DNA from: Pycnococcus provasolii
Lineage: Eukaryota > Chlorophyta > Pseudoscourfieldiophyceae > Pseudoscourfieldiales > Pycnococcaceae
Direction of reading: 5' to 3'
Assembly: GCA_938743325.2 (NCBI GenBank)
Contig: OW568862.1
Coordinates: 123,501 to 187,500 of the forward strand
Length of the DNA: 64,000 bases
The notes beneath the pieces were generated by a model. That model did not search any database, had not been told where the DNA came from, and saw only the letters and a list, made by a program, of their open reading frames with translations. Every line of letters starts with the position of its first letter. Positions within the stretch are counted from its first letter, which is position 1. Shown here one piece after another: positions 1 through 30,596 of the stretch. Both the position numbers and the translations under genes were made by a program.

Positions 1-3000
1 TGCCGCCGTCCTCCGGCGCCTGCATCGTCACGCCGCCATTCTCCGCAGTGGCTGTCAAGAGCACCGTCGACGCGTGCGTGCCCACGCCCTCGATCGTCAC
101 GCCGCCGCTCGCGTGCGTGTTACGCACGTGCACGGCGCTCGCGCTGTTCTGAGTCGACGCGACGTCAACCTTGCCGGTGCTCATCACACTCACGCCGCCC
201 GTGCCCGCGCCGACCGTCACAGAACCCGCCGCGTGCGTCGCCGCCTGGATCGTTACTCCGCCCTCGTCGTGCGACGCCTCGATGCTCACAGCCGCAGCGT
301 CCGCCTCGCCAGCCTGCACGTTCACGCTCGCGAGCGTACTGTGCAGCGCGATGTCGCCCGTGCCGCCCGGAGAGCCGTACGATGTCACAACCGCGCCGTA
401 GAAGCCGCCCACGAGAGCGCCTGTGCTGCTCATGTACGTGCCGCCCGTGCCAGACGCAACCTCGACGCTGCCGCTGCCGTGCGTGCCGCCTTGCACAGAC
501 ACGCCGCCGGACGCGCTCGTCGCCGTGATGCTCACCGCGCCGTCCTTCGCGCCCGCGCTCTCGATCGCCACGGTGTCTTGCGCGCCGACAAGCACGCCGC
601 CCTCCGCGTGGCTCGCCGTGACCTTCACCGAAGACGACGACGCCTGCGTGCTGTCGACGGCGACCGTGCCAGAGCTGCCCACGGACACGCCGCCCGTGCT
701 GCTCGACACCGTCACGCTGCCGCCGTCCTCCGGCGCCTGCATCGTCACGCCGCCATTCTCCGCAGTGGCTGCCAAGAGCACCGTCGACGCGTGCGTGCCC
801 ACGCCCTCGATCGTCACGCCGCCGCTCGCGTGCGTGTTACGTACGTGCACGGCGCTCGCGCTGTTCTGAGCCGACGCGACGTCAACCTTGCCGTCGCCGA
901 ACACGCTGATGGAGTCCGTACTCGTCACACTCACGCCGCCCGTGCCCGCGCCGACCGTCACAGAACCCGCCGCGTGCGTCGCCGCCTGGATCGTCACGCC
1001 GCCCTCGTCGTGCGACGCCTCGATGCTCACAGCCGCAGCGTCCGCCTCGCCAGCCTGCACGTTCACGCTCGCGAGCGAGCTGTGCAGCGTGATGTCGCCC
1101 GTGCCGCCCGGAGAGCCGTACGATGTCACAACCGCGCCGTAGAAGCCGCCCACGAGAGCGCCTGTGCTGCTCATGTACGTGCCGCCCGTGCCAGACGCAA
1201 TCTCGACGCTGCCGCTGCCGTGCGTGCCGCCTTGCACAGATACGCCGCCGGACGCGCTCGTCGCCGTGATGCTCACCGCGCCGTCCTTCGCGCCCGCGCT
1301 CTCGATCGCCACGGTGTCTTGCGCGCCGACAAGCACGCCGCCCTCCGCGTGGCTCGCCGTGATCTTCACCGACGACGACGACGCCTGCGTGCTGTCGACG
1401 GCGACCGTGCCAGAGCTGCCCACGGACACGCCGCCCGTGCTGCTCGACACCGTCACGCTGCCGCCGTCTTCCGGCGCCTGCATCGTCACGCCGCCATTCT
1501 CCGCAGTGGCTGTCAAGAGCACCGTCGACGCGTGCGTGCCCACGCCCTCGATCGTCACGCCGCCGCTCGCGTGCGTGTTACGTACGTGCACGGCGCTCGC
1601 GCTGTTCTGAGCCGACGCGACGTCAACCTTGCCGTCGCCGAACACGCTGATGGAGTCCGTACTCGTCACACTCACGCCGCCCGTGCCCGCGCCGACCGTC
1701 ACAGAACCCGCCGCGTGCGTCGCCGCCTGGATCATCACGCCGCCCTCGTCGTGCGACGCCTCGATGCTCACGGCCGCAGCGTCCGCCTCGCCAGCCTGCA
1801 CGTTCACGCTCGCGAGCGAGCTGTGCAGCGTGATGTCGCCCGTGCCGCCCGGAGAGCCGTACGATGTCACAACCGCGCCGTAGAAGCCGCCCACGAGAGC
1901 GCCTGTGCTGCTCATGTACGTGCCGCCCGTGCCAGACGCAACCTCGACGCTGCCGCTACCGTGCGTGCCGCCTTGCACAGATACGCCGCCGGACGCGCTC
2001 GTCGCCGTGATGCTCACCGCGCCGTCCTTCGCGCCCGCGCTCTCGATCGCCACGGTGTCTTGCGCGCCGACAAGCACGCCGCCCTCCGCGTGGCTCGCCG
2101 TGATCTTCACCGACGACGACGACGCCTGCGTGCTGTCGACGGCGACCGTGCCAGAGCTGCCCACGGACACGCCGCCCGTGCTGCTCGACACCGTCACGCT
2201 GCCGCCGTCCTCCGGCGCCTGCATCGTCACGCCGCCATTCTCCGCAGTGGCTGTCAAGAGCACCGTCGACGCGTGCGTGCCCACGCCCTCGATCGTCACG
2301 CCGCCGCTCGCGTGCGTGTTACGCACGTGCACGGCGCTCGCGCTGTTTTGAGCCGACGCGACGTCAACCTTGCCGTCGCCGAACACGCTGATGGAGTCCG
2401 TACTCGTCACACTCACGCCGCCCGTGCCCGCGCCGACCGTCACAGAACCCGCCGCGTGCGTCGCCGCCTGGATCATCACGCCGCCCTCGTCGTGCGACGC
2501 CTCGATGCTCACGGCCGCAGCGTCCGCCTCGCCAGCCTGCACGTTCACGCTCGCGAGCGAGCTGTGCAGCGTGATGTCGCCCGTGCCGCCCGGAGAGCCG
2601 TACGATGTCACAACCGCGCCGTAGAAGCCGCCCACGAGAGCGCCTGTGCTGCTCATGTACGTGCCGCCCGTGCCAGACGCAACCTCGACGCTGCCGCTAC
2701 CGTGCGTGCCGCCTTGCACAGATACGCCGCCGGACGCGCTCGTCGCCGTGATGCTCACCGCGCCGTCCTTCGCGCCCGCGCTCTCGATCGCCACGGTGTC
2801 TTGCGCACCGACGAGCACGCCGCCCTCCGCGTGGCTCGCCGTGATCTTCACCGACGACGACGACGCCTGCGTGCTGTCGACGGCGACCGTGCCAGAGCTG
2901 CCCACGGACACGCCGCCCGTGCTGCTCGACACCGTCACGCTGCCGCCGTCCTCCGGCGCCTGCATCGTCACGCCGCCATTCTCCGCAGTGGCTGTCAAGA

Positions 3001-6000
3001 GCACCGTCGACGCGTGCGTGCCCACGCCCTCGATCGTCACGCCGCCGCTCGCGTGCGTGTTACGTACGTGCACGGCGCTCGCGCTGTTCTGAGTCGACGC
3101 GACGTCAACCTTGCCGGTGCTCATCACACTCACGCCGCCCGTGCCCGCGCCGACCGTCACAGAACCCGCCGCGTGCGTCGCCGCCTGGATCATCACGCCG
3201 CCCTCGTCGTGCGACGCCTCGATGCTCACGGCCGCAGCGTCCGCCTCGCCAGCCTGCACGTTCACGCTCGCGAGCGAGCTGTGCAGCGTGATGTCGCCCG
3301 TGCCGCCCGGAGAGCCGTACGATGTCACAACCGCGCCGTAGAAGCCGCCCACGAGAGCGCCTGTGCTGCTCATGTACGTGCCGCCCGTGCCAGACGCAAC
3401 CTCGACGCTGCCGCTGCCGTGCGTGCCGCCTTGCACAGACACGCCGCCGGACGCGCTCGTCGCCGTGATGCTCACCGCGCCGTCCTTCGCGCCCGCGCTC
3501 TCGATCGCCACGGTGTCTTGCGCGCCGACAAGCACGCCGCCCTCCGCGTGGCTCGCCGTGATCTTCACCGACGACGACGACGCCTGCGTGCTGTCGACGG
3601 CGACCGTGCCAGAGCTGCCCACGGACACGCCGCCCGTGCTGCTCGACACCGTCACGCTGCCGCCGTCCTCCGGCGCCTGCATCGTCACGCCGCCATTCTC
3701 CGCAGAGGCTGTCAAGAGCACCGTCGACGCGTGCGTGCCCACGCCCTCGATCGTCACGCCGCCGCTCGCGTGCGTGTTACGTACGTGCACGGCGCTCGCG
3801 CTGTTCTGAGCCGACGCGACGTCAACCTTGCCGTCGCCGAACACGCTGATGGAGTCCGTACTCGTCACACTCACGCCGCCCGTGCCCGCGCCGACCGTCA
3901 CAGAACCCGCCGCGTGCGTCGCCGCCTGGATCATCACGCCGCCCTCGTCGTGCGACGCCTCGATGCTCACGGCCGCAGCGTCCGCCTCGCCAGCCTGCAC
4001 GTTCACGCTCGCGAGCGAGCTGTGCAGCGTGATGTCGCCCGTGCCGCCCGGAGAGCCGTACGATGTCACAACCGCGCCGTAGAAGCCGCCCACGAGAGCG
4101 CCTGTGCTGCTCATGTACGTGCCGCCCGTGCCAGACGCAACCTCGACGCTGCCGCTACCGTGCGTGCCGCCTTGCACAGATACGCCGCCGGACGCGCTCG
4201 TCGCCGTGATGCTCACCGCGCCGTCCTTCGCGCCCGCGCTCTCGATCGCCACGGTGTCTTGCGCGCCGACAAGCACGCCGCCCTCCGCGTGGCTCGCCGT
4301 GATCTTCACCGACGACGACGACGCCTGCGTGCTGTCGACGGCGACCGTGCCAGAGCTGCCCACGGACACGCCGCCCGTGCTGCTCGACACCGTCACGCTG
4401 CCGCCGTCCTCCGGCGCCTGCATCGTCACGCCGCCATTCTCCGCAGAGGCTGTCAAGAGCACCGTCGACGCGTGCGTGCCCACGCCCTCGATCGTCACGC
4501 CGCCGCTCGCGTGCGTGTTACGCACGTGCACGGCGCTCGCGCTGTTCTGAGCCGACGCGACGTCAACCTTGCCGTCGCCGAACACGCTGATGGAGTCCGT
4601 ACTCGTCACACTCACGCCGCCCGTGCCCGCGCCGACCGTCACAGAACCCGCCGCGTGCGTCGCCGCCTGGATCATCACGCCGCCCTCGTCGTGCGACGCC
4701 TCGATGCTCACGGCCGCAGCGTCCGCCTCGCCAGCCTGCACGTTCACGCTCGCGAGCGAGCTGTGCAGCGTGATGTCGCCCGTGCCGCCCGGAGAGCCGT
4801 ACGATGTCACAACCGCGCCGTAGAAGCCGCCCACGAGAGCGCCTGTGCTGCTCATGTACGTGCCGCCCGTGCCAGACGCAACCTCGACGCTGCCGCTGCC
4901 GTGCGTGCCGCCTTGCACAGATACGCCGCCGGACGCGCTCGTCGCCGTGATGCTCACCGCGCCGTCCTTCGCGCCCGCGCTCTCGATCGCCACGGTGTCT
5001 TGCGCGCCGACAAGCACGCCGCCCTCCGCGTGGCTCGCCGTGATCTTCACCGACGACGACGACGCCTGCGTGCTGTCGACGGCGACCGTGCCAGAGCTGC
5101 CCACGGACACGCCGCCCGTGCTGCTCGACACCGTCACGCTGCCGCCGTCCTCCGGCGCCTGCATCGTCACGCCGCCATTCTCCGCAGTGGCTGCCAAGAG
5201 CACCGTCGACGCGTGCGTGCCCACGCCCTCGATCGTCACGCCGCCGCTCGCGTGCGTGTTACGCACGTGCACGGCGCTCGCGCTGTTCTGAGCCGACGCG
5301 ACGTCAACCTTGCCGTCGCCGAACACGCTGATGGAGTCCGTACTCGTCACACTCACGCCGCCCGTGCCCGCGCCGACCGTCACAGAACCCGCCGCGTGCG
5401 TCGCCGCCTGGATCATCACGCCGCCCTCGTCGTGCGACGCCTCGATGCTCACGGCCGCAGCGTCCGCCTCGCCAGCCTGCACGTTCACGCTCGCGAGCGA
5501 GCTGTGCAGCGTGATGTCGCCCGTGCCGCCCGGAGAGCCGTACGATGTCACAACCGCGCCGTAGAAGCCGCCCACGAGAGCGCCTGTGCTGCTCATGTAC
5601 GTGCCGCCCGTGCCAGACGCAACCTCGACGCTGCCGCTGCCGTGCGTGCCGCCTTGCACAGATACGCCGCCGGACGCGCTCGTCGCCGTGATGCTCACCG
5701 CGCCGTCCTTCGCGCCCGCGCTCTCGATCGCCACGGTGTCTTGCGCGCCGACAAGCACGCCGCCCTCCGCGTGGCTCGCCGTGATCTTCACCGACGACGA
5801 CGACGCCTGCGTGCTGTCGACGGCGACCGTGCCAGAGCTGCCCACGGACACGCCGCCCGTGCTGCTCGACACCGTCACGCTGCCGCCGTCTTCCGGCGCC
5901 TGCATCGTCACGCCGCCATTCTCCGCAGTGGCTGCCAAGAGCACCGTCGACGCGTGCGTGCCCACGCCCTCGATCGTCACGCCGCCGCTAGCGTGCGTGT

Positions 6001-9000
6001 TACGTACGTGCACGGCGCTCGCGCTGTTCTGAGCCGACGCGACGTCAACCTTGCCGTCGCCGAACACGCTGATGGAGTCCGTACTCGTCACACTCACGCC
6101 GCCCGTGCCCGCGCCGACCGTCACAGAACCCGCCGCGTGCGTCGCCGCCTGGATCATCACGCCGCCCTCGTCGTGCGACGCCTCGATGCTCACGGCCGCA
6201 GCGTCCGCCTCGCCAGCCTGCACGTTCACGCTCGCGAGCGAGCTGTGCAGCGTGATGTCGCCCGTGCCGCCCGGAGAGCCGTACGATGTCACAACCGCGC
6301 CGTAGAAGCCGCCCACGAGAGCGCCTGTGCTGCTCATGTACGTGCCGCCCGTGCCAGACGCAACCTCGACGCTGCCGCTACCGTGCGTGCCGCCTTGCAC
6401 AGATACGCCGCCGGACGCGCTCGTCGCCGTGATGCTCACCGCGCCGTCCTTCGCGCCCGCGCTCTCGATCGCCACGGTGTCTTGCGCGCCGACAAGCACG
6501 CCGCCCTCCGCGTGGCTCGCCGTGATCTTCACCGACGACGACGACGCCTGCGTGCTGTCGACGGCGACCGTGCCAGAGCTGCCCACGGACACGCCGCCCG
6601 TGCTGCTCGACACCGTCACGCTGCCGCCGTCCTCCGGCGCCTGCATCGTCACGCCGCCATTCTCCGCAGTGGCTGTCAAGAGCACCGTCGACGCGTGCGT
6701 GCCCACGCCCTCGATCGTCACGCCGCCGCTCGCGTGCGTGTTACGTACGTGCACGGCGCTCGCGCTGTTCTGAGCCGACGCGACGTCAACCTTGCCGGTG
6801 CTCATCACACTCACGCCGCCCGTGCCCGCGCCGACCGTCACAGAACCCGCCGCGTGCGTCGCCGCCTGGATCATCACGCCGCCCTCGTCGTGCGACGCCT
6901 CGATGCTCACGGCCGCAGCGTCCGCCTCGCCAGCCTGCACGTTCACGCTCGCGAGCGAGCTGTGCAGCGTGATGTCGCCCGTGCCGCCCGGAGAGCCGTA
7001 CGATGTCACAACCGCGCCGTAGAAGCCGCCCACGAGAGCGCCTGTGCTGCTCATGTACGTGCCGCCCGTGCCAGACGCAACCTCGACGCTGCCGCTGCCG
7101 TGCGTGCCGCCTTGCACAGACACGCCGCCGGACGCGCTCGTCGCCGTGATGCTCACCGCGCCGTCCTTCGCGCCCGCGCTCTCGATCGCCACGGTGTCTT
7201 GCGCGCCGACAAGCACGCCGCCCTCCGCGTGGCTCGCCGTGATCTTCACCGACGACGACGACGCCTGCGTGCTGTCGACGGCGACCGTGCCAGAGCTGCC
7301 CACGGACACGCCGCCCGTGCTGCTCGACACCGTCACGCTGCCGCCGTCCTCCGGCGCCTGCATCGTCACGCCGCCATTCTCCGCAGAGGCTGTCAAGAGC
7401 ACCGTCGACGCGTGCGTGCCCACGCCCTCGATCGTCACGCCGCCGCTCGCGTGCGTGTTACGTACGTGCACGGCGCTCGCGCTGTTCTGAGCCGACGCGA
7501 CGTCAACCTTGCCGTCGCCGAACACGCTGATGGAGTCCGTACTCGTCACACTCACGCCGCCCGTGCCCGCGCCGACCGTCACAGAACCCGCCGCGTGCGT
7601 CGCCGCCTGGATCATCACGCCGCCCTCGTCGTGCGACGCCTCGATGCTCACGGCCGCAGCGTCCGCCTCGCCAGCCTGCACGTTCACGCTCGCGAGCGAG
7701 CTGTGCAGCGTGATGTCGCCCGTGCCGCCCGGAGAGCCGTACGATGTCACAACCGCGCCGTAGAAGCCGCCCACGAGAGCGCCTGTGCTGCTCATGTACG
7801 TGCCGCCCGTGCCAGACGCAACCTCGACGCTGCCGCTACCGTGCGTGCCGCCTTGCACAGATACGCCGCCGGACGCGCTCGTCGCCGTGATGCTCACCGC
7901 GCCGTCCTTCGCGCCCGCGCTCTCGATCGCCACGGTGTCTTGCGCGCCGACAAGCACGCCGCCCTCCGCGTGGCTCGCCGTGATCTTCACCGACGACGAC
8001 GACGCCTGCGTGCTGTCGACGGCGACCGTGCCAGAGCTGCCCACGGACACGCCGCCCGTGCTGCTCGACACCGTCACGCTGCCGCCGTCCTCCGGCGCCT
8101 GCATCGTCACGCCGCCATTCTCCGCAGAGGCTGTCAAGAGCACCGTCGACGCGTGCGTGCCCACGCCCTCGATCGTCACGCCGCCGCTCGCGTGCGTGTT
8201 ACGCACGTGCACGGCGCTCGCGCTGTTCTGAGCCGACGCGACGTCAACCTTGCCGTCGCCGAACACGCTGATGGAGTCCGTACTCGTCACACTCACGCCG
8301 CCCGTGCCCGCGCCGACCGTCACAGAACCCGCCGCGTGCGTCGCCGCCTGGATCATCACGCCGCCCTCGTCGTGCGACGCCTCGATGCTCACGGCCGCAG
8401 CGTCCGCCTCGCCAGCCTGCACGTTCACGCTCGCGAGCGAGCTGTGCAGCGTGATGTCGCCCGTGCCGCCCGGAGAGCCGTACGATGTCACAACCGCGCC
8501 GTAGAAGCCGCCCACGAGAGCGCCTGTGCTGCTCATGTACGTGCCGCCCGTGCCAGACGCAACCTCGACGCTGCCGCTGCCGTGCGTGCCGCCTTGCACA
8601 GATACGCCGCCGGACGCGCTCGTCGCCGTGATGCTCACCGCGCCGTCCTTCGCGCCCGCGCTCTCGATCGCCACGGTGTCTTGCGCGCCGACAAGCACGC
8701 CGCCCTCCGCGTGGCTCGCCGTGATCTTCACCGACGACGACGACGCCTGCGTGCTGTCGACGGCGACCGTGCCAGAGCTGCCCACGGACACGCCGCCCGT
8801 GCTGCTCGACACCGTCACGCTGCCGCCGTCCTCCGGCGCCTGCATCGTCACGCCGCCATTCTCCGCAGTGGCTGCCAAGAGCACCGTCGACGCGTGCGTG
8901 CCCACGCCCTCGATCGTCACGCCGCCGCTCGCGTGCGTGTTACGCACGTGCACGGCGCTCGCGCTGTTCTGAGCCGACGCGACGTCAACCTTGCCGTCGC

Positions 9001-12000
9001 CGAACACGCTGATGGAGTCCGTACTCGTCACACTCACGCCGCCCGTGCCCGCGCCGACCGTCACAGAACCCGCCGCGTGCGTCGCCGCCTGGATCATCAC
9101 GCCGCCCTCGTCGTGCGACGCCTCGATGCTCACGGCCGCAGCGTCCGCCTCGCCAGCCTGCACGTTCACGCTCGCGAGCGAGCTGTGCAGCGTGATGTCG
9201 CCCGTGCCGCCCGGAGAGCCGTACGATGTCACAACCGCGCCGTAGAAGCCGCCCACGAGAGCGCCTGTGCTGCTCATGTACGTGCCGCCCGTGCCAGACG
9301 CAACCTCGACGCTGCCGCTGCCGTGCGTGCCGCCTTGCACAGACACGCCGCCGGACGCGCTCGTCGCCGTGATGCTCACCGCGCCGTCCTTCGCGCCCGC
9401 GCTCTCGATCGCCACGGTGTCTTGCGCGCCGACAAGCACGCCGCCCTCCGCGTGGCTCGCCGTGATCTTCACCGACGACGACGACGCCTGCGTGCTGTCG
9501 ACGGCGACCGTGCCAGAGCTGCCCACGGACACGCCGCCCGTGCTGCTCGACACCGTCACGCTGCCGCCGTCCTCCGGCGCCTGCATCGTCACGCCGCCAT
9601 TCTCCGCAGTGGCTGCCAAGAGCACCGTCGACGCGTGCGTGCCCACGCCCTCGATCGTCACGCCGCCGCTCGCGTGCGTGTTACGCACGTGCACGGCGCT
9701 CGCGCTGTTCTGAGCCGACGCGACGTCAACCTTGCCGTCGCCGAACACGCTGATGGAGTCCGTACTCGTCACACTCACGCCGCCCGTGCCCGCGCCGACC
9801 GTCACAGAACCCGCCGCGTGCGTCGCCGCCTGGATCATCACGCCGCCCTCGTCGTGCGACGCCTCGATGCTCACGGCCGCAGCGTCCGCCTCGCCAGCCT
9901 GCACGTTCACGCTCGCGAGCGAGCTGTGCAGCGTGATGTCGCCCGTGCCGCCCGGAGAGCCGTACGATGTCACAACCGCGCCGTAGAAGCCGCCCACGAG
10001 AGCGCCTGTGCTGCTCATGTACGTGCCGCCCGTGCCAGACGCAACCTCGACGCTGCCGCTGCCGTGCGTGCCGCCTTGCACAGACACGCCGCCGGACGCG
10101 CTCGTCGCCGTGATGCTCACCGCGCCGTCCTTCGCGCCCGCGCTCTCGATCGCCACGGTGTCTTGCGCGCCGACAAGCACGCCGCCCTCCGCGTGGCTCG
10201 CCGTGATCTTCACCGACGACGACGACGCCTGCGTGCTGTCGACGGCGACCGTGCCAGAGCTGCCCACGGACACGCCGCCCGTGCTGCTCGACACCGTCAC
10301 GCTGCCGCCGTCCTCCGGCGCCTGCATCGTCACGCCGCCATTCTCCGCAGTGGCTGCCAAGAGCACCGTCGACGCGTGCGTGCCCACGCCCTCGATCGTC
10401 ACGCCGCCGCTCGCGTGCGTGTTACGCACGTGCACGGCGCTCGCGCTGTTCTGAGCCGACGCGACGTCAACCTTGCCGGTGCTCATCACACTCACGCCGC
10501 CCGTGCCCGCGCCGACCGTCACAGAACCCGCCGCGTGCGTCGCCGCCTGGATCATCACGCCGCCCTCGTCGTGCGACGCCTCGATGCTCACAGCCGCAGC
10601 GTCCGCCTCGCCAGCCTGCACGTTCACGCTCGCGAGCGAGCTGTGCAGCGTGATGTCGCCCGTGCCGCCCGGAGAGCCGTACGATGTCACAACCGCGCCG
10701 TAGAAGCCGCCCACGAGAGCGCCTGTGCTGCTCATGTACGTGCCGCCCGTGCCAGACGCAACCTCGACGCTGCCGCTGCCGTGCGTGCCGCCTTGCACAG
10801 ACACGCCGCCGGACGCGCTCGTCGCCGCGATGCTCACCGCGCCGTCCTTCGCGCCCGCGCTCTCGATCGCCACGGTGTCTTGCGCGCCGACAAGCACGCC
10901 GCCCTCCGCGTGGCTCGCCGTGATCTTCACCGACGACGACGACGCCTGCGTGCTGTCGACGGCGACCGTGCCAGAGCTGCCCACGGACACGCCGCCCGTG
11001 CTGCTCGACACCGTCACGCTGCCGCCGTCTTCCGGCGCCTGCATCGTCACGCCGCCATTCTCCGCAGTGGCTGTCAAGAGCACCGTCGACGCGTGCGTGC
11101 CCACGCCCTCGATCGTCACGCCGCCGCTCGCGTGCGTGTTACGTACGTGCACGGCGCTCGCGCTGTTCTGAGCCGACGCGACGTCAACCTTGCCGGTGCT
11201 CATCACACTCACGCCGCCCGTGCCCGCGCCGACCGTCACAGAACCCGCCGCGTGCGTCGCCCCTCGGATCGTTACGCCGCCCTCGTCGTGCGACGCCTCG
11301 ATGCTCACGGCCGCAGCGTCCGCCTCGCCAGCCTGCAAATTCAAGCTAGCTATAGAACTGTGCAGCGTGATGTCGCCCGTGCCGCCCGGAGAGCCGTACG
11401 ATGTCACAACCGCGCCGTAGAAGCCGCCCACGAGAGCGCCTGTGCTGCTCATGTACGTGCCGCCCGTGCCAGACGCAACCTCGACGCTGCCGCTGCCGTG
11501 CGTGCCGCCTTGCACAGATACGCCGCCGGACGCGCTCGTCGCCGTGATGCTCACCGCGCCGTCCTTCGCGCCCGCGCTCTCGATCGCCACGGTGTCTTGC
11601 GCGCCGACAAGCACGCCGCCCTCCGCGTGGCTCGCCGTGATCTTCACCGACGACGACGACGCCTGCGTGCTGTCGACGGCGACCGTGCCAGAGCTGCCCA
11701 CGGACACGCCGCCCGTGCTGCTCGACACCGTCACGCTGCCGCCGTCTTCCGGCGCCTGCATCGTCACGCCGCCATTCTCCGCAGAGGCTGTCAAGAGCAC
11801 CGTCGACGCGTGCGTGCCCACGCCCTCGATCGTCACGCCGCCGCTCGCGTGCGTGTTACGCACGTGCACGGCGCTCGCGCTGTTCTGAGTCGACGCGACG
11901 TCAACCTTGCCGGTGCTCATCACACTCACGCCGCCCGTGCCCGCGCCGACCGTCACAGAACCCGCCGCGTGCGTCGCCGCCTGGATCGTCACGCCGCCCT

Positions 12001-12140
12001 TGTCATGCGACGCCTCGATGCTCACGGCCGCAGCATCCGCCTCGCCAGCCTGCACGTTCACGCTCGCGAGCGTGCTGTGGAGCGAGATGTCACCTGTTCC
12101 TCCCGGGTTTCCGTACGATGATATGATGGCGCCATAAAAT
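1..12140 (-). repeat. Coding tandem repeat, 741/717-bp units, 16 units plus partial ends
   Basis: The same landmark recurs at 423, 1164, 1905, 2646, 3363, 4104, 4845, 5586, 6327, 7044, 7785, 8526, 9267, 10008, 10725 and 11442. Spacing is 741 bp except for four 717-bp units, which lack 24 bp (eight residues in one loop). Units differ by only a few substitutions. Both lengths are multiples of three, so the encoded solenoid stays in frame. The unit nearest 11.3 kb and the end at about 12.1 kb are more diverged, as expected at an array edge. Confidence 0.95.
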
Positions 12141-15100
12141 CCTCCAACATATGCACCAGTACTACTCAGGTATGTGCCACCTAGACCAGAGGCCATGCTA
12201 ATTTCTCCTGATCCATGAGTTCCCGCAGCTATCTCAATTCCTCCTCCAGCTGCAGTTGCAAGAATACTTACTGCGGATGTGACTTCATGCTTTGAATCAA
12301 CGATGATATTCTTTTCTGATGCAACGACTAAGTCACCTGTGATCGTTTCGAGAAGCATTTTACCCTCGCTTCGAGCGTGCACTCCGCCGTGAATCGACGA
12401 TGCGTGCACTTTCACAGCGTCATCTGCCTGCTGCTTGGATTGCATGTAGACGCGATTATCAGTACTATTGATTGTAAGCTGTCCTTCCAGTGTTCTGAGG
12501 TGCAGGGTTGACATCGACTGCACATCAATGCCACCGTATCCAGAGTCGATGTCCATAGATCCGGCGCCGTCGACACCAGCCTGCATTTTAATTCCGCCAT
12601 TTGGGCTACTTGCCTCAATACTCACCGCAGCTGCGTCAGCTTCGCCGCCATCGATATTTACGCTGGCAAGCGTCGCCTCAAGTGTAATGTCTCCTGTGGC
12701 ACCGGCAACGCCGTAGCTTGTGATCGCAGCGCCATAGAAAGATCCAAGTGCGGCACCCGTTGAGGATAGATACATACCCCCTGTGCCACTGTCAATGTCA
12801 ACTGTACCACTTCCATGTGTGCCAGCCTGAATGGCAACGCCACCGGTGAAGCTTGTTGCGACGATGCTCACAGCTCCCGTGTCGTCATCGCCTCCACTAA
12901 TACTAACACTCTTCAGCGTGGACTGCACAGCAATATCGCCAGTTGTGAGCAATCCGATGCCTCCGGCTCCAGATTCCATGCCGATACCACCAGCTGGGTG
13001 ACTAGCCTGCATGCTAATAGCATCCTTCACATCCTCCACACTTTGGATTAGCACTGAGTGATCCGTGCTATTCACCGTGATGTCGCCGTGCATCGTGCGA
13101 AGATCCATGGCGCCCATTGACTGCACGTCGATGCCACCCGTGCCACTGTCAACATCGATACCTCCCGCAGCGCCACTCGCGCGAAGAACCAGAGCATCGA
13201 CATCCTCCTTGTTAGAATCCACATGTAATGTATGATTCGTAGAGTTTGCCACTAGCCTTCCATCAAGTGTGCGTAGGTCCATTCCACCCGCACTTTGCAC
13301 ATCAATTCCACCTTTGCCGCTGTCGACGTCAAGCGTTCCATTTCCACGCACGCCTGCGTTAACAACGATGCCTCCGTCGCTTGCGCTTGCTTCGATTGAA
13401 ACGGCGTCGGCAATGTTCTCGCCGCCGTCAATGTTAACGCTAGCCAAACTTGCTTCGATGGTCACGTCACCAATTCCTCCAGCCGATCCGTACGAAGTGA
13501 CGAGCGCGCCGTAAAATCCTCCCACTAGTGCTCCCGTGCTTGACAAGCTGATTCCACCAGTGCCTGACCCCATGTCGATCGCGCCGGAACCATACGTTCC
13601 AGCTTGCACGGATACACCGCCACCAGCATGACTTGCGGTGATTGAAACTGCTGACTCGCTCTGCTCGCCGCCGTCAATGTTCACGCTGCTGCGCGTGCTC
13701 TGAATCATAGCATCTCCTACGCTTTCGACGTCAAAGCCACCTCGCCCCGCGTCAATATCAATGCCTCCCTCGTCGTGGTACGTATTCAGCCGAATCGCGT
13801 CGCTTGTTGGTTCACCGCTCATCAGACGCACGCTTGCCTTCCTAGCCTCCACCTTGATGTCACTGTCGCCGCCATCCTCCACAGTCGTCAGCGTTATCTG
13901 ACCTGTCGATAGAGCGTCGATATTTCCCTTGTTGGCATAGATGTCCACACCACCTCTTCGGTGTGTCGCTTGAATCTTCACGGCGTCATTTCCTGTGCCG
14001 TCAGACTGCACAATCACGCTCGAATCCGTTTTGCCAGAGACCTCAAGTATAAGATCGTCGTCCTTGCTGTCCGAGTGTACCTGGAAGTGACTTGGCACGC
14101 CACGACCATCCATATGAATAAAGCTTTGGCTGTCCACGTCGATGCCACCAAGACCAGCATCGACGTCGATGCCTCCTTTCTTATGCTCGGCAAGAAGACG
14201 AACGGCATCCGGAGCTGCCTCACCGCCAATCACCTGCACGCTCGCTTTTTGGCTGTGCACCGTGATGTCGCCAAAGCCCTCAGGGTCAGCCGAGCCCGTC
14301 GTGGTTAGAGTCGCGTGACTCTTCGACTTTGCGTGAATGCCGCCGGTGCCGCTGTCAATATCTATGCCGCCACCGTCATTGCATTCCGTTAGAATGCGCA
14401 CTGCATCAGCAACACACTCCCCAGCCATGATGTTCGCAGATCCGAAGTCAGTCCGCAGCGTAACATCGCCGTCAGAGAGTGGCTGAGCACCTGTGCTCCG
14501 AAACTGAATCGGACCTGTGGTGAGAGCGTCGATTCCCGCGGTACCCGCGTCAATATCAATTCCTCCACCCGCATGGCATGCGTGGATTCGTATGGCGTCT
14601 GGAGCTTCCTCGCAGCCAATCATGTTGACGGAAGATAATGTTGAATGGAGTGTTATATCGCCAAATGTTGCTGTGCCTGTCGTTATCATTTTGATGGTAC
14701 CTGCGGATTGCCCGTGAATGCCACCTGCGTCGACTGCCGGCGTGTTGATGTACACGGCATCGGGGACAGCTTCGTGGCCGATGATGTTAACGCTGGCAAC
14801 GGTCGACTCGATCGTAATGTCTCCCGGACCATTTGCGGCACCGGTTGTCTTGAGTCTGATATGCCCAGCCGACTCGGCGTGAATGCCTCCGGTGTTCGCG
14901 CATGGCGAGTATAGGTACACGGCGTCCGAAACGCACTCGCGGCCGATAATCTGCACACTTGCGAGCGTCGAGTCGAGAGTGATATCGCCCGCTCCTCCGG
15001 CGGCACCAGTGGTTGTCATCTTGATATGACCAGCTGACGTCCCGAGAATGCCACCAGTGTTCGCAGCCGTTGCATGCAGCTTCACCGCATCCGAGGCGCC

Positions 15101-17890
15101 TTCGTTGCTGACGATATTCACGCTCGCGACGTCGGCGAGCACGGTGATGTCGCCCGAGGCACCCACGGCACCGGTTGACTTGACCAAGATGTGCCCAGCC
15201 GACTCGGCGAAAATGCCTCCAGTATTGGCGGTAGATGCGTGTATGTACACGGCGTCGGATACACCCTCGCGGCCGATAATCTGCACACTTGCGAGCGTCG
15301 AGTCGAGAGTGATATCGCCCGCTCCTCCGGCGGCACCAGTGGTTGTCATCTTGATATGACCAGCTGACGTCCCGAGAATGCCACCAGTGTTCGCAGCCGT
15401 TGCGTGCAGCTTCACCGCATCCGAGGCGCCTTCGTTGCTGACGATATTCACGCTCGCGACGTCGGCGAGCACGGTGATGTCGCCCGAGGCACCCACGGCA
15501 CCGGTTGACTTGACCAAGATGTGCCCAGCCGACTCGGCGAAAATGCCTCCAGTATTGGCGGTAGATGCGTGTATGTACACGGCGTCGGATACACCCTCTC
15601 CGCCGCGTATTTTTACACTTTTCTGAACTGCGTGCAAGTCAATATCTCCAGTGGCGGAGTTGCCAAGTGACGTGAGGAGGATACCGCCGGCCGAAGTCTC
15701 CGCACGCACCGCGTCGATGCCTATTCCCTCGCTTTTTAGAACGACCGAGCTGTCCGTCGCTCCCGTAAGGATGAGTGATAGGTCGTCCGCAGGATCGTCT
15801 GAGATCACTCGGTATGTGCTCGGGTAGTGCTGACTGAAAAAGGACACGGTGCCAAGACTCTTGACGATCACGCCATCAGTTCCCACGTCAGCCTCGATAC
15901 CACCAGGTGAGCTCACGACACAGTCTCCGTTCGTGTCAGTATTGCATGCAATGAAACTGATCGCATCGACTGCAGGGTTCTGACTTCGGAGACTGACCCG
16001 TCCGCCCGGTGTCCAAAGTGTGATGTCACCACTGACGCCGGATCCCGTTGACTTGATCTGGACCGGGCCGCTGGTGTCCTGATAAATGCCTCTGCACCCC
16101 GCTTGGAGCTCAAGCTTGCCGCCGCCATTGATACCAGCCTGAATCGATAGAAGGCTTACCTGCGTGCACATGGTCGCTTCGATCCCGCTCCAGATGCGGA
16201 TTCCACCAAGCGGGTTCTGCGAGTAGAGAAAGATGGCATCGTCGCGTGGTGCATCGCTGACGAATCCTGGATCAAAGCCCAGCTTGACCGCCTTCGTTGT
16301 CGTTTTGCACATGAGAAGGCCCGTGTTCTTCGATTGAAATGTGACAAACTCGTTTGCGCACGAGATCTTGCTGTTGCAACATGCAATCTTAAGATCGAAG
16401 CCTCCATCGAAGGGAAGAATGTGAAAAATGCTTCCCTGCACAGCGTTATTAATGATAAGCTCGCGATCCGCTGTCAGAGTAACTGGCAGAATGAACGAGA
16501 ACGGCTCTGTGGAGAAGTCGACAATCACGTTAGCGTTCGTGAGCTGGTAAAATTCTGTGCCAGCGTAAGCTTTGCTCATGATGATGTTGTTCACAAACGA
16601 GGCACCTTCAGCGTAAAAGCCGCCCTTCAGGGTCACAGATCCCTGCGTATGGTCGGTGAAGTTTGCCCACTCTGGGTGAGTGCCAATGATGCGGCCATCC
16701 GTGTTGACTTGACCAGTCGTCTGCGTGATGCGAAACGGCGTGCCGCCCGTGCTATTGTACACATTAACGTCCGCGCGAATGTTGGCGGAAATCTGGTTCG
16801 ATCCCAGCGTTTCCTCGCTCATGCGCAGGACCTCCACCATCGGCTGCATGCCCGTTGCGTTGGCGGCGTGATTTGCCGCGGTGGTTGGCACGCGAACAAT
16901 GAACGACCCGCGATTTCCCGCACCTGTGCCAGCACCAGCCTCGAGAGCGAGGTCGACGCCTGGGGCATTGCTGCCCGTCGTTCGCGCGGATGTGATTGTG
17001 CGCCCGTCCGCCGGGCAAGTCGCGCCCGATCCGAGGCACCGCGTGAGAAGCAGCTGTGCGTCCAGCTCCAGAACGCCGTTGGATAGCGTCTCCGTCTGCG
17101 TTCCGGACGTTGAGCTCGTCTCGTCGCGGAGCGTGACCTTGCCCTTGGTCGGTGTCTGCAGTCTCACGGCTCCTGGCCCGGCGGTCCCACCGCCGGCACC
17201 TGAGCTCATGGTAAGGTCGCTGCCGCGCGCGCCATCCGCCGCCTGTGGGGCCATGCGAACGTTTCCGACGCCATCTGCATTCGCAAACTCGAGTGCCTTG
17301 GTGCTTTTGACGAGGTTCGCGGGGTTTAAGCTCACGTCTGTTCGGCTGACGACGTTGACGTCGCCCGCGGGCCCAATCAGCACAGGGTAGTTGTTCGCGC
17401 CCAGCGGCAGCGCCGCGAGAGCGAGTGCGGACAGCACGCCTCGCGTGACGGCGGAAATGCCGTCTGAACGCGCGTGTCTTCTTTGACGCCGAGATCTCGC
17501 CGACGTCGTCGCGCGCGCGGGCGGCGAGCGCCGGCACGGCTCATCCTCCGCCTTGCCTCCTCCTGCGCACCCGAGATCTCGCGCGTGCACGTCGTCGTGC
17601 GCAGTCTCTCTTCTCGCGCCTGGCACGGTTTGCGCCCAGTCCGGTGCACGAGCTGCACCGTGTCCGCCGCCTCTTCTGTCATGCCTGCACTCCTCCACGA
17701 GCACATCGTTTCGCCGCGACGTCCTACCTGCGTCGCCTTGTCTTAGTCGTTCGTGTTTTCTTCTCGACGAAAGCTTGCGCGCGTTGCCTTGTTGTTGTTG
17801 TTGTTGTTGAAGTTCTTCAGAGAGCGTCCACGCCGGGTTAGTCCACGCCGGTAGTGACGAGGACCGAGAAGGAGTAGACGAAGACGCCAT
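1..17890 (-). CDS. Giant membrane-anchored repeat protein (beta-solenoid-like), 3' end beyond the window
   Basis: One minus-strand frame appears open from an ATG at 17890 to the left edge (at least 5,963 codons). I translated sample segments near 17.1, 16.7, 15.6, 14.1, 13.1, 12.2 and 0.9 kb and all lie in the same frame. The N-terminus is Ser-rich, then a short Gln run (about residue 28), then about 100 basic residues, then one hydrophobic segment (residues 143-165, GVLSALALAALPLG), which suggests a type II signal anchor with the rest outside the cell or in the lumen. Residues 165-650 are non-repetitive. After that come Gly-Gly-Val/Ile motifs every 20-27 residues alternating with short V/I-rich strands, as in beta-solenoids. 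From about residue 1,917 the protein is 247/239-residue near-perfect repeats. I recognise no family; an adhesive or cell-coat role is inference. The start is chosen because it is in frame and follows long non-coding DNA. Confidence 0.8.
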   Translation of the reverse strand, partial: MASSSTPSRSSSLPAWTNPAWTLSEELQQQQQQQGNARKLSSRRKHERLRQGDAGRTSRRNDVLVEECRHDRRGGGHGAARAPDWAQTVPGARRETAHDDVHARDLGCAGGGKAEDEPCRRSPPARATTSARSRRQRRHARSDGISAVTRGVLSALALAALPLGANNYPVLIGPAGDVNVVSRTDVSLNPANLVKSTKALEFANADGVGNVRMAPQAADGARGSDLTMSSGAGGGTAGPGAVRLQTPTKGKVTLRDETSSTSGTQTETLSNGVLELDAQLLLTRCLGSGATCPADGRTITSARTTGSNAPGVDLALEAGAGTGAGNRGSFIVRVPTTAANHAANATGMQPMVEVLRMSEETLGSNQISANIRADVNVYNSTGGTPFRITQTTGQVNTDGRIIGTHPEWANFTDHTQGSVTLKGGFYAEGASFVNNIIMSKAYAGTEFYQLTNANVIVDFSTEPFSFILPVTLTADRELIINNAVQGSIFHILPFDGGFDLKIACCNSKISCANEFVTFQSKNTGLLMCKTTTKAVKLGFDPGFVSDAPRDDAIFLYSQNPLGGIRIWSGIEATMCTQVSLLSIQAGINGGGKLELQAGCRGIYQDTSGPVQIKSTGSGVSGDITLWTPGGRVSLRSQNPAVDAISFIACNTDTNGDCVVSSPGGIEADVGTDGVIVKSLGTVSFFSQHYPSTYRVISDDPADDLSLILTGATDSSVVLKSEGIGIDAVRAETSAGGILLTSLGNSATGDIDLHAVQKSVKIRGGEGVSDAVYIHASTANTGGIFAESAGHILVKSTGAVGASGDITVLADVASVNIVSNEGASDAVKLHATAANTGGILGTSAGHIKMTTTGAAGGAGDITLDSTLASVQIIGREGVSDAVYIHASTANTGGIFAESAGHILVKSTGAVGASGDITVLADVASVNIVSNEGASDAVKLHATAANTGGILGTSAGHIKMTTTGAAGGAGDITLDSTLASVQIIGRECVSDAVYLYSPCANTGGIHAESAGHIRLKTTGAANGPGDITIESTVASVNIIGHEAVPDAVYINTPAVDAGGIHGQSAGTIKMITTGTATFGDITLHSTLSSVNMIGCEEAPDAIRIHACHAGGGIDIDAGTAGIDALTTGPIQFRSTGAQPLSDGDVTLRTDFGSANIMAGECVADAVRILTECNDGGGIDIDSGTGGIHAKSKSHATLTTTGSADPEGFGDITVHSQKASVQVIGGEAAPDAVRLLAEHKKGGIDVDAGLGGIDVDSQSFIHMDGRGVPSHFQVHSDSKDDDLILEVSGKTDSSVIVQSDGTGNDAVKIQATHRRGGVDIYANKGNIDALSTGQITLTTVEDGGDSDIKVEARKASVRLMSGEPTSDAIRLNTYHDEGGIDIDAGRGGFDVESVGDAMIQSTRSSVNIDGGEQSESAVSITASHAGGGVSVQAGTYGSGAIDMGSGTGGISLSSTGALVGGFYGALVTSYGSAGGIGDVTIEASLASVNIDGGENIADAVSIEASASDGGIVVNAGVRGNGTLDVDSGKGGIDVQSAGGMDLRTLDGRLVANSTNHTLHVDSNKEDVDALVLRASGAAGGIDVDSGTGGIDVQSMGAMDLRTMHGDITVNSTDHSVLIQSVEDVKDAISMQASHPAGGIGMESGAGGIGLLTTGDIAVQSTLKSVSISGGDDDTGAVSIVATSFTGGVAIQAGTHGSGTVDIDSGTGGMYLSSTGAALGSFYGAAITSYGVAGATGDITLEATLASVNIDGGEADAAAVSIEASSPNGGIKMQAGVDGAGSMDIDSGYGGIDVQSMSTLHLRTLEGQLTINSTDNRVYMQSKQQADDAVKVHASSIHGGVHARSEGKMLLETITGDLVVASEKNIIVDSKHEVTSAVSILATAAGGGIEIAAGTHGSGEISMASGLGGTYLSSTGAYVGGFYGAIISSYGNPGGTGDISLHSTLASVNVQAGEADAAAVSIEASHDKGGVTIQAATHAAGSVTVGAGTGGVSVMSTGKVDVASTQNSASAVHVRNTHASGGVTIEGVGTHASTVLLTASAENGGVTMQAPEDGGSVTVSSSTGGVSVGSSGTVAVDSTQASSSSVKITASHAEGGVLVGAQDTVAIESAGAKDGAVSITATSASGGVSVQGGTHGSGSVEVASGTGGTYMSSTGALVGGFYGAVVTSYGSPGGTGDITLHSSIASLNLQAGEADAAAVSIEASHDEGGVTIRGATHAAGSVTVGAGTGGVSVMSTGKVDVASAQNSASAVHVRNTHASGGVTIEGVGTHASTVLLTATAENGGVTMQAPEDGGSVTVSSSTGGVSVGSSGTVAVDSTQASSSSVKITASHAEGGVLVGAQDTVAIESAGAKDGAVSIAATSASGGVSVQGGTHGSGSVEVASGTGGTYMSSTGALVGGFYGAVVTSYGSPGGTGDITLHSSLASVNVQAGEADAAAVSIEASHDEGGVMIQAATHAAGSVTVGAGTGGVSVMSTGKVDVASAQNSASAVHVRNTHASGGVTIEGVGTHASTVLLAATAENGGVTMQAPEDGGSVTVSSSTGGVSVGSSGTVAVDSTQASSSSVKITASHAEGGVLVGAQDTVAIESAGAKDGAVSITATSASGGVSVQGGTHGSGSVEVASGTGGTYMSSTGALVGGFYGAVVTSYGSPGGTGDITLHSSLASVNVQAGEADAAAVSIEASHDEGGVMIQAATHAAGSVTVGAGTGGVSVTSTDSISVFGDGKVDVASAQNSASAVHVRNTHASGGVTIEGVGTHASTVLLAATAENGGVTMQAPEDGGSVTVSSSTGGVSVGSSGTVAVDSTQASSSSVKITASHAEGGVLVGAQDTVAIESAGAKDGAVSITATSASGGVSVQGGTHGSGSVEVASGTGGTYMSSTGALVGGFYGAVVTSYGSPGGTGDITLHSSLASVNVQAGEADAAAVSIEASHDEGGVMIQAATHAAGSVTVGAGTGGVSVTSTDSISVFGDGKVDVASAQNSASAVHVRNTHASGGVTIEGVGTHASTVLLAATAENGGVTMQAPEDGGSVTVSSSTGGVSVGSSGTVAVDSTQASSSSVKITASHAEGGVLVGAQDTVAIESAGAKDGAVSITATSASGGVSVQGGTHGSGSVEVASGTGGTYMSSTGALVGGFYGAVVTSYGSPGGTGDITLHSSLASVNVQAGEADAAAVSIEASHDEGGVMIQAATHAAGSVTVGAGTGGVSVTSTDSISVFGDGKVDVASAQNSASAVHVRNTHASGGVTIEGVGTHASTVLLTASAENGGVTMQAPEDGGSVTVSSSTGGVSVGSSGTVAVDSTQASSSSVKITASHAEGGVLVGAQDTVAIESAGAKDGAVSITATSASGGVSVQGGTHGSGSVEVASGTGGTYMSSTGALVGGFYGAVVTSYGSPGGTGDITLHSSLASVNVQAGEADAAAVSIEASHDEGGVMIQAATHAAGSVTVGAGTGGVSVTSTDSISVFGDGKVDVASAQNSASAVHVRNTHASGGVTIEGVGTHASTVLLTASAENGGVTMQAPEDGGSVTVSSSTGGVSVGSSGTVAVDSTQASSSSVKITASHAEGGVLVGAQDTVAIESAGAKDGAVSITATSASGGVSVQGGTHGSGSVEVASGTGGTYMSSTGALVGGFYGAVVTSYGSPGGTGDITLHSSLASVNVQAGEADAAAVSIEASHDEGGVMIQAATHAAGSVTVGAGTGGVSVMSTGKVDVASAQNSASAVHVRNTHASGGVTIEGVGTHASTVLLTATAENGGVTMQAPEDGGSVTVSSSTGGVSVGSSGTVAVDSTQASSSSVKITASHAEGGVLVGAQDTVAIESAGAKDGAVSITATSASGGVSVQGGTHGSGSVEVASGTGGTYMSSTGALVGGFYGAVVTSYGSPGGTGDITLHSSLASVNVQAGEADAAAVSIEASHDEGGVMIQAATHAAGSVTVGAGTGGVSVTSTDSISVFGDGKVDVASAQNSASAVHVRNTHASGGVTIEGVGTHASTVLLAATAENGGVTMQAPEDGGSVTVSSSTGGVSVGSSGTVAVDSTQASSSSVKITASHAEGGVLVGAQDTVAIESAGAKDGAVSITATSASGGVSVQGGTHGSGSVEVASGTGGTYMSSTGALVGGFYGAVVTSYGSPGGTGDITLHSSLASVNVQAGEADAAAVSIEASHDEGGVMIQAATHAAGSVTVGAGTGGVSVTSTDSISVFGDGKVDVASAQNSASAVHVRNTHASGGVTIEGVGTHASTVLLAATAENGGVTMQAPEDGGSVTVSSSTGGVSVGSSGTVAVDSTQASSSSVKITASHAEGGVLVGAQDTVAIESAGAKDGAVSITATSASGGVSVQGGTHGSGSVEVASGTGGTYMSSTGALVGGFYGAVVTSYGSPGGTGDITLHSSLASVNVQAGEADAAAVSIEASHDEGGVMIQAATHAAGSVTVGAGTGGVSVTSTDSISVFGDGKVDVASAQNSASAVHVRNTHASGGVTIEGVGTHASTVLLTASAENGGVTMQAPEDGGSVTVSSSTGGVSVGSSGTVAVDSTQASSSSVKITASHAEGGVLVGAQDTVAIESAGAKDGAVSITATSASGGVSVQGGTHGSGSVEVASGTGGTYMSSTGALVGGFYGAVVTSYGSPGGTGDITLHSSLASVNVQAGEADAAAVSIEASHDEGGVMIQAATHAAGSVTVGAGTGGVSVTSTDSISVFGDGKVDVASAQNSASAVHVRNTHASGGVTIEGVGTHASTVLLTASAENGGVTMQAPEDGGSVTVSSSTGGVSVGSSGTVAVDSTQASSSSVKITASHAEGGVLVGAQDTVAIESAGAKDGAVSITATSASGGVSVQGGTHGSGSVEVASGTGGTYMSSTGALVGGFYGAVVTSYGSPGGTGDITLHSSLASVNVQAGEADAAAVSIEASHDEGGVMIQAATHAAGSVTVGAGTGGVSVMSTGKVDVASTQNSASAVHVRNTHASGGVTIEGVGTHASTVLLTATAENGGVTMQAPEDGGSVTVSSSTGGVSVGSSGTVAVDSTQASSSSVKITASHAEGGVLVGAQDTVAIESAGAKDGAVSITATSASGGVSVQGGTHGSGSVEVASGTGGTYMSSTGALVGGFYGAVVTSYGSPGGTGDITLHSSLASVNVQAGEADAAAVSIEASHDEGGVMIQAATHAAGSVTVGAGTGGVSVTSTDSISVFGDGKVDVASAQNSASAVHVRNTHASGGVTIEGVGTHASTVLLTATAENGGVTMQAPEDGGSVTVSSSTGGVSVGSSGTVAVDSTQASSSSVKITASHAEGGVLVGAQDTVAIESAGAKDGAVSITATSASGGVSVQGGTHGSGSVEVASGTGGTYMSSTGALVGGFYGAVVTSYGSPGGTGDITLHSSLASVNVQAGEADAAAVSIEASHDEGGVMIQAATHAAGSVTVGAGTGGVSVTSTDSISVFGDGKVDVASAQNSASAVHVRNTHASGGVTIEGVGTHASTVLLTATAENGGVTMQAPEDGGSVTVSSSTGGVSVGSSGTVAVDSTQASSSSVKITASHAEGGVLVGAQDTVAIESAGAKDGAVSITATSASGGVSVQGGTHGSGSVEIASGTGGTYMSSTGALVGGFYGAVVTSYGSPGGTGDITLHSSLASVNVQAGEADAAAVSIEASHDEGGVTIQAATHAAGSVTVGAGTGGVSVTSTDSISVFGDGKVDVASAQNSASAVHVRNTHASGGVTIEGVGTHASTVLLAATAENGGVTMQAPEDGGSVTVSSSTGGVSVGSSGTVAVDSTQASSSSVKVTASHAEGGVLVGAQDTVAIESAGAKDGAVSITATSASGGVSVQGGTHGSGSVEVASGTGGTYMSSTGALVGGFYGAVVTSYGSPGGTGDIALHSTLASVNVQAGEADAAAVSIEASHDEGGVTIQAATHAAGSVTVGAGTGGVSVMSTGKVDVASTQNSASAVHVRNTHASGGVTIEGVGTHASTVLLTATAENGGVTMQAPEDGG
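14950..15630 (-). repeat. Second, smaller coding repeat (330 bp, about two copies)
   Basis: Within the same giant gene, the segment near 15048-15359 is repeated almost identically 330 bp further on (15378-15626). It encodes a 110-residue unit made of two similar sub-units of about 55 residues, with the motifs TANTGGIF/TAANTGGIL, SAGHI and SDAV. It belongs to the diverged part of the solenoid and shows duplication outside the main array. Confidence 0.85.
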
Positions 17891-30141: not shown

Positions 30142-30596
30142 CGTCACCACCTGATAGCAGTCCCCCCCTAAGGGTTGCACATGTGTGGAACGAACGAACC
30201 CACCCGCCAACAAAAAAGGAAGGGAGGAGGAGGACTGGTAATTAAAGGGATCTCCCAAGAAACAGTCGGGCCAAACGCATGCCGAAGCCATAGGGTTAGA
30301 CCACTGTACTGTAAGGTGTGATGTCACATATGTACATACAGTATGTACATGCATGCTGTGGGGAGTGTGGGCACGGCACTGCACTGCACAGTAGGGTAGT
30401 GCACACCCACAAGGTCAAGGGGAATCGTCATTACGGCCTTACTTAACTTACGGGCAGACGGAACGGGGAGGATTGCCCATTTGATTTGGGGGAGAGGAGA
30501 GGCCGTCTAAGGTGAGGCTCGTCTTTCCCGCCCCTGGCTGCCTGGCATTCTCTCAAAAAAATCAACTCCACTGCAACGACACGTGTGCTCGACCTC
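30142..30596. other. Divergent promoter region
   Basis: Shared upstream region of the FAD oxidoreductase (minus) and the repeat protein (plus). It holds a GTACAT-rich, partly palindromic stretch near 30328-30355 and a single TAGGGTTAG element at about 30292. The upstream extension of the FAD frame into this region has only short Met-containing, unconserved-looking sequence and is treated as non-coding. Confidence 0.5.

What the first reader, a model, noticed from the sequence alone, without database searches (positions are those of the whole stretch)
1..17890. Single open frame of at least 5,963 codons: a giant anchored solenoid protein
The minus frame from ATG 17890 shows no stop in any segment I translated and runs off the left edge. 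It starts with a basic cytosolic-type segment, one membrane helix, a unique head domain, then solenoid-type repeats for the rest. This architecture (head near the membrane, very long repeat stalk outward) would make a filament or coat protein. I know no family that matches, so it may be undescribed.
Basis: partly seen in the sequence, partly recalled or inferred. Interest (0 to 1): 0.75.

Follow-up and report, generated by a model that had tools for sequence, protein, structure and literature searches.

The report
Giant algal protein of phage-fibre repeats
A tiny marine green alga carries a gene with a single reading frame of about 8,300 codons, built largely from repeat types otherwise found here in virus tail-fibre proteins and some bacterial surface proteins, which suggests the alga uses virus-style fibres as a giant cell-surface filament.

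Summary
The frame is real and longer than reported: 5,963 codons in the window plus 2,311 outside, giving 8,274 codons from ATG 17890. The assembly matches the published genome of the green alga Pycnococcus provasolii, chromosome 2. A second database sequence has the same gene with fewer repeat units. The solenoid reading is supported: the repeats are modelled as all-beta, and the low-confidence model resembles beta-helices, phage tailspikes first. It is not without relatives. Residues ~690-2000, and array A more weakly, are related in sequence to repeat proteins on viral contigs and in some bacteria. The C-terminal part, outside the window, matches a repeat of phage tail fibres. Two paralogues exist; cellular genes lie beside all three. 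Best explanation: a secreted or membrane-anchored giant surface fibre built from phage-type modules. Surface location and function are inferred.

The parts
2..17890 (-). window part of the giant frame (residues 1-5963 of 8,274 from ATG 17890); it continues outside to C2:116566
17402..17458 (-). residues 145-163, hydrophobic segment: signal peptide or signal anchor, undecided
   Evidence: Kyte-Doolittle peak 1.69
15824..17398 (-). 'head', residues 165-689, no family or usable model; holds 10 of the 21 cysteines
   Evidence: residues 481-690 match viral repeats weakly (1.4 to 20.3 bits over eight ORFs, controls up to 4.1)
16079..16159 (-). possible 81-base in-frame intron (GTAAGC...ATCAG), absent from the second sequence P0005
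11888..15823 (-). divergent solenoid repeats, residues 690-2001, related to viral and bacterial repeat proteins
2..11887 (-). array A: near-identical units of 239 or 247 codons, 17 marks in all, running past the left edge
2..12121 (+). antisense open frame, a by-product of the GC-rich third positions of array A, not a gene

Best explanation
A nuclear gene of the green alga Pycnococcus provasolii (or its near twin Pseudoscourfieldia) encodes a giant extracellular fibre protein. Shown: one frame of 8,274 codons in the order hydrophobic segment, head, beta-rich solenoid-type repeats (divergent, then array A, then array B of 115-residue units), tail-fibre modules, tail that looks like a coiled coil by eye; sequence kinship of the divergent solenoid and tail-fibre parts to virus proteins; two paralogues; unit-number differences in arrays A and B between two sequences. 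Inferred: the N-terminus carries it into the secretory route, the solenoid forms a beta-helical stalk of the order of 0.1 micrometre (about 27 residues per turn and 0.48 nm rise, recalled), and the fibre modules and tail form an outward, perhaps oligomeric tip. It would then serve as a coat or adhesive filament of the cell wall, with repeat number setting its length. The modules were probably acquired from viruses or bacteria and then expanded in the alga.
For: Frame and extent. Algal location: cellular genes beside it, chromosome-scale assembly (PMC11130579, outline and sections 4 and 5 read). Solenoid kinship: residues 691-1440 against viral ORF L183 give 210 bits (blastp 33% identity over 578 columns), with 8 reversed, 200 shuffled and 200 five-residue-block-shuffled controls below 0 bits; a profile of modules from the viral set, without algal rows, gives 607.6 bits on the giant and 71.4 on the C43 paralogue, nothing on C29, 3 reversed and 60 shuffled controls. 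Fibre module: a profile of 22 viral modules (19 distinct) hits the C-terminus at domain E down to 2e-21, with no hit on 3 reversed and 40 shuffled sequences and the other window frames of 60 residues or more. 74 long proteins match the C29 paralogue, 23 of 74 with Peptidase_S74. Two viral ORFs (L150, L163) hold both module kinds. Paralogue C29 begins with a signal-peptide-like stretch (by eye); C43 has one strong hydrophobic helix (2.26) before its solenoid.
Against: No transcript, peptide or localisation was available. The N-terminal ~70 codons lack coding signal and the hydrophobic segment is short. The viral loci and modules were picked with algal motifs or profiles, so selection is partly circular. 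Array B hardly matches the viral proteins (best 13 bits) and array A unevenly (-1 to 54 bits). The structural model is of low confidence and Foldseek gave nothing at E 0.001 or better. Searches of the phages collection with algal sequence found nothing significant (low-complexity filter on), and pattern-based viral scans with the head, C43, C-terminus and FYG-unit queries found no relative (28, 29, 49, 69).
Confidence: 0.6

Rival explanations
1. An endogenous viral element: the attachment-fibre gene of an integrated polinton-like or large DNA virus, carried along and serving the virus, not the alga.
For: Fibre modules are viral in type. A paper on polinton-like viruses of protists reports bacteriophage-like fibre proteins and long multi-domain proteins over 1,000 residues (PMC12220804, four passages seen), and a prasinovirus paper names a putative tail fibre gene (PMC12584671, one passage).
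Against: Cellular gene families lie near all three loci on three contigs, though at C29 only 2 of the 5 neighbour frames scanned matched Pfam. No match to the Pox_A32 packaging ATPase family in the genome, control rang in 2 of 14. The NCLDV capsid search was silent, but so was its control. No Peptidase_S74 match in the genome, control rang in 1 of 14. Codon usage of the window part from 17681 down is that of neighbouring genes.
Confidence: 0.15
2. A bacterial-type adhesin (two-partner or Patescibacteria-like surface protein) acquired from bacteria; the similarity to viruses reflects a repeat shared by phages and their hosts.
For: 12 of 60 bacterial loci picked by a DNA pattern carry the solenoid repeat by profile, 5 of 60 by single-sequence search; 7 of the 12 are titled Uhrbacteria, Gracilibacteria or Patescibacteria, and the three printed ORFs (L249, L258, L260) start with signal-like segments (no reversed control). 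Foldseek and VIA rows include EtpA and HxuA.
Against: The fibre module was found in 0 of those 60 bacterial loci but in many viral ones; the loci were chosen for the solenoid motif, so this is a weak test. No filamentous-haemagglutinin Pfam family matched the four pieces scanned.
Confidence: 0.2
3. Not a working gene: a tandem-repeat expansion in a decaying acquired gene, with the open frame kept by composition.
For: The 247-codon units of array A are at least 99% identical, so recent amplification; both strands are open there; the 239-codon units show no synonymous bias; the fibre-module region differs strongly between the two sequences.
Against: About 3,200 non-array codons are open too. Arrays A and B differ between two sequences by whole units, with 1 substitution in 1,963 aligned residues at the N-terminal end. 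Synonymous bias in the 247-codon units.
Confidence: 0.05

Closest known systems
Virion structural and tail-fibre proteins of marine cyanophages and other viruses (module '...DN..AF.I.EG.N.Y..FDT...TGALVVTGGVGI..NLNVGG')
   Same: The C-terminal modules of the giant and most of paralogue C29 match a profile of these viral modules.
   Different: Encoded in an algal chromosome; no Peptidase_S74 chaperone found; fused behind a solenoid of about 6,500 residues; RRRLL-type dibasic motifs and a tail that matched none of the viral set.
Unnamed solenoid repeat proteins on environmental viral contigs (L183, L181, L172, L229, L163)
   Same: Same repeat pattern, 33% identity over 578 columns to L183; two viral ORFs also hold the fibre half-module.
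   Different: The viral frames looked at are about 460-1,580 residues, most of them cut by the end of the stretch; the algal one is 8,274 with near-identical arrays.
Repeat proteins of Patescibacteria (Uhrbacteria, Gracilibacteria MAGs)
   Same: Same solenoid repeat, in three printed cases behind a signal-like N-terminus.
   Different: No tail-fibre module found in those loci.
Beta-helix proteins (fold class recalled): cyanophage Pam1 tailspike, phi29 gp12, HxuA/EtpA adhesins
   Different: No PDB sequence match; model pLDDT 51.

Membership tests
Phage/virus tail-fibre protein | tail-fibre repeat module | tested here: met
   viral-only profile, domain E down to 2e-21, clean controls; modules were selected with an algal profile
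Phage/virus tail-fibre protein | C-terminal Peptidase_S74 chaperone (present in 23 of 74 relatives) | tested here: not met
   no match in the genome; control rang in E. coli
Phage/virus tail-fibre protein | gene lies in a virus genome | tested here: not met
   cellular gene families near all three loci
Endogenous polinton-like or giant virus | packaging ATPase or capsid gene nearby | tested here: inconclusive
   Pox_A32 not found genome-wide; capsid search silent with silent control; polinton-like families not searched
Two-partner secretion / filamentous haemagglutinin adhesins | haemagglutinin Pfam domains | tested here: not met
   none in Pfam scans of four pieces of the giant at E 0.1 (residues 3001-5963, near-identical array, not scanned)
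Parallel beta-helix fold | helical coil of short parallel strands | tested here: inconclusive
   all-beta, pLDDT 51, pTM 0.42; VIA best rows are beta-helix proteins, Foldseek none at E 0.001
Algal mastigoneme or scale proteins (recalled) | sequence kinship to named mastigoneme or scale proteins | not tested
   no such reference sequences were searched; one paper says no flagellate stage has been reported for Pycnococcus (PMC10495350, passage)

The most novel reading that the evidence does not exclude
A eukaryote has domesticated phage-type fibre modules: a small family of nuclear genes in a picoplanktonic green alga (8,274, ~3,260 and 1,285 codons) makes its cell-surface filaments from the building blocks of virus tail fibres, with filament length tuned by expansion of near-identical repeat units.
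Probability: 0.4. Interest if true: 0.8.

Novelty: new variant of a known kind. Interest (0 to 1): 0.6.

Why it matters
If expressed, this would be one of the longer single-frame proteins known from an alga (my impression, not searched for). It would show that fibre modules that phages use to hold on to cells can become structural surface parts of a eukaryote. It also gives a solenoid repeat that matched no Pfam family here a distribution across viral contigs, some bacteria and a green alga, and it is testable in a cultured strain with a chromosome-level genome.

Tried and rejected
Rejected: the plus-strand ORF 2-12121 as a gene (codon-register by-product); contamination (cellular neighbours, chromosome-scale contig, codon usage); Pfam scores on the repeats as real domains (KH_GLD-3_2nd 31.0 and RavZ_cat 28.8 bits, above cut-off but no single stretch passes). 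Led nowhere: Rfam and tRNA scans; PDB by sequence; viral contigs with the head, C43, C-terminus and FYG-unit queries; genome contigs with the FYG-unit alignment; phages tblastn with four algal pieces and L183 (47, 48, 59, 66, 100; one search gave only six matches at E 4-6, all cyanophages by name); head model; PHROGs on L181 and L183 and on ten other frames of viral stretches L172, L181 and L183, of which 3 of 10 matched a family, none of them a tail or fibre family. One weak control hit: a reversed frame matched the FYG-unit profile at E 0.09. Families not listed by VIA-align are not excluded. Printed papers: the listings showed, by title and start of abstract, no paper on this gene (one search listed 10 of 29, 8 of 13); only open-licence PMC texts are held.

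Full report
What was claimed and what is there. The claimed frame exists at the stated coordinates. The minus strand is open from TTG 18001, with the first ATG at 17890, to the left edge, exactly 5,963 codons from that ATG. Neighbouring sequence of the same genome shows 2,311 further codons and a stop at C2:116566. Total: 8,274 codons. Chance is excluded even for the part outside the arrays. Codon usage supports the minus frame in every block from 17681 down to 11922, the end of that scan, and no frame clearly above it. The N-terminal ~70 codons are therefore doubtful.

Where it lies. A paralogue on C43 is 100% (rounded) by local alignment over 98% to an NCBI protein called 'adhesin domain-containing protein' of Pseudoscourfieldia marina. 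The published Pycnococcus provasolii CCAP190/2 assembly has 44 chromosomes plus mitochondrion and plastid, a figure legend giving 32,253,916 bp (79,984 less than here, near the plastid's 80.2 kb), chromosome 2 of 1.45 Mb, chromosomes 29 and 43 of 0.60 and 0.30 Mb (PMC11130579, outline and sections 4 and 5 read). These figures fit closely; the identification is by size, count and name, not by sequence accession. That paper states 100% 18S identity of the two species and 444-fold HiFi coverage.

Anatomy. Residues 1-164: basic, low-complexity, with a hydrophobic stretch 145-163 (peak 1.69). Residues 165-689: 'head', with 10 of the 21 cysteines. Residues 690-2001: divergent solenoid repeats, hydrophobic autocorrelation at 23, 34 and 55, glycine at 55, 49 and 110. 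Array A: 17 marks spaced 239 or 247, the 11 units of 247 codons at 99.1-100% pairwise DNA identity. Array B: 8 marks spaced 115. Then an RRRLLQ motif at 7195, tail-fibre modules 7264-8109, two more dibasic motifs, and a tail that looks like a coiled coil by eye and ends in cysteine. The reading of the dibasic motifs as processing sites is recalled, not tested.

A second sequence. Database protein P0005 (7,162 residues, source not given) is the same protein: 1 substitution in 1,963 aligned residues at the N-terminal end, 14 against 17 array-A marks, 5 against 8 array-B marks, 2 substitutions in the last 105 residues, but a much rearranged fibre-module region (192 substitutions and 151 gapped columns in the alignment). 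It lacks 27 residues in the head and 46 at the array-B junction. In our DNA both stretches can be read as bounded by GT and AG and in frame (81 and 138 bases), so they may be introns of a gene model. The second looks like coding repeat sequence and may be a mis-prediction or a real deletion.

Strand. Array A is open on both strands. The plus ORF is in codon register, and its stops would need TTA, CTA or TCA codons in the minus frame, of which there are 4 in 4,160. Variable codons in the 247-codon units are 9 synonymous of 13 in the minus frame and 3 of 13 in the plus frame, P 0.0015-0.004 against neutral expectation. The five 239-codon units give 10 synonymous of 23, no clear bias; many of these changes sit in one unit, which looks like conversion.

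Paralogues. Own-genome searches with the first 2,000 residues of the frame, the head, the C-terminal 1,244 residues and C43 found only this gene and two others. C29 has a 3,288-codon frame beginning with a signal-peptide-like stretch, mostly fibre modules. C43 has a 1,306-codon frame (1,285 from its ATG) with a strong hydrophobic helix and a solenoid. The tool says such counts are lower bounds. Frames near the three loci include cellular families: WW/IQ, MORN, MFS, DUF676, SUN-domain, leishmanolysin and a glycine transporter on C2, amino-acid permease, P450 and KH on C43 (86, 91), DUF726 and a 2OG-Fe oxygenase on C29, where 3 of 5 scanned frames had no match (86, 91).

Relatives: the tail-fibre module. 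Four long frames with the complete module (L063-L066) were printed. A 742-residue piece of the L063 protein matches 66 phage records, 65 of them cyanophages by name (Synechococcus, Prochlorococcus, Cyanophage); of the 20 listed, 17 are annotated as structural or tail fibre. A profile from 22 viral modules (19 distinct) hits the giant (314 bits) and C29 (1,016 bits) and none of 3 reversed, 40 shuffled or other window frames. A search of 5.8 billion proteins with C29 residues 60-480 gave 74 proteins of 2,434 candidates scored, 23 of 74 with Peptidase_S74; the nine I looked at are long fibre-like repeat proteins.

Relatives: the solenoid. tblastn and exact-word tools found none, perhaps because low-complexity filters remove the repeats. 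A degenerate pattern for its core motif returned 85 viral stretches. Against 7,150 frames and proteins of the viral set, residues 691-1440 matched 50 at E 10 or better, the best at 2.6e-62, and reversed frames none; one reversed frame matched the FYG-unit profile at E 0.09. With eight of these ORFs, scores were 74-210 bits for residues 691-1440 and 27-90 for 1440-1990, weaker for array A (-1 to 54) and near nothing for array B (best 13); 8 reversed, 200 shuffled and 200 block-shuffled controls all stayed below 0 bits for those pieces. Residues 165-480 did not match at all; 481-690 gave 1.4-20.3 bits against controls up to 4.1. A profile of modules from the viral set alone gave the giant 607.6 bits with 21 modules, C43 71.4 bits with 3, C29 nothing. 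Two viral ORFs carry both module kinds; in L163 the fibre half-module directly precedes the solenoid. The loci were chosen by a 12-residue motif of the algal protein; that explains why they were found, not a 578-column alignment. Of 60 bacterial loci with the same pattern, 12 carry the repeat by profile, 7 of these Uhrbacteria, Gracilibacteria or Patescibacteria by title; none carries the fibre module (no reversed control). MAG contigs may be misbinned phages.

What kind of viruses. Of 20 records searched (of 195 viral loci held then), 4 have a tailed-phage terminase family, 0 the NCLDV capsid family, whose control was silent. Some of the long proteins lie on contigs of 250-400 kb and may be of giant viruses; not tested.

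Reading. The simplest account is a giant secreted or anchored fibre of the algal surface assembled from virus-type fibre modules and lengthened by unit duplication. Shown: frame, repeats, kinship, paralogues, genomic setting. Inferred: entry into the secretory route, outward orientation, trimeric tip, function as coat or adhesive filament, direction of transfer. Viruses of protists are reported to carry phage-like fibres (PMC12220804, four passages seen; PMC12584671, one passage), which gives a plausible route. A flagellar role is less likely in this species, since one paper says no flagellate stage has been reported for Pycnococcus (PMC10495350, passages seen), though the twin Pseudoscourfieldia is a flagellate (recalled).

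Verdict. Observation confirmed and extended; interpretation partly right. The thing is not without kin: it is a new, very large, eukaryotic variant of fibre-type repeat proteins.

Noticed in passing
window 30585-33026 (+): 813-codon frame with 11 tandem copies of 195 bases and a Pfam 'integrase repeat unit' match (PF14882)
   Followed up: no
window 57890-58338 and 40769-41131: internal arrays of TAGGGT-type (telomere-like) and AAACGAAACCCCT-type repeats
   Followed up: no
window 22001-24000: strong AT skew (0.405) over a MORN-repeat frame
   Followed up: no
window 59551-63999 (-): leishmanolysin-like (Peptidase_M8) frame open at the right edge
   Followed up: no
L249, L258, L260, L263, L244, L272, L294: Patescibacteria MAG contigs carry the solenoid repeat, the three printed ones behind signal-like segments
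   Followed up: partly
L150:1-4737 and L163:1-3006: viral frames that hold both the solenoid and the tail-fibre half-module
   Followed up: partly
L032:67-9930 (C29): paralogue of 3,288 codons made mostly of phage-type fibre modules behind a signal-peptide-like start
   Followed up: partly
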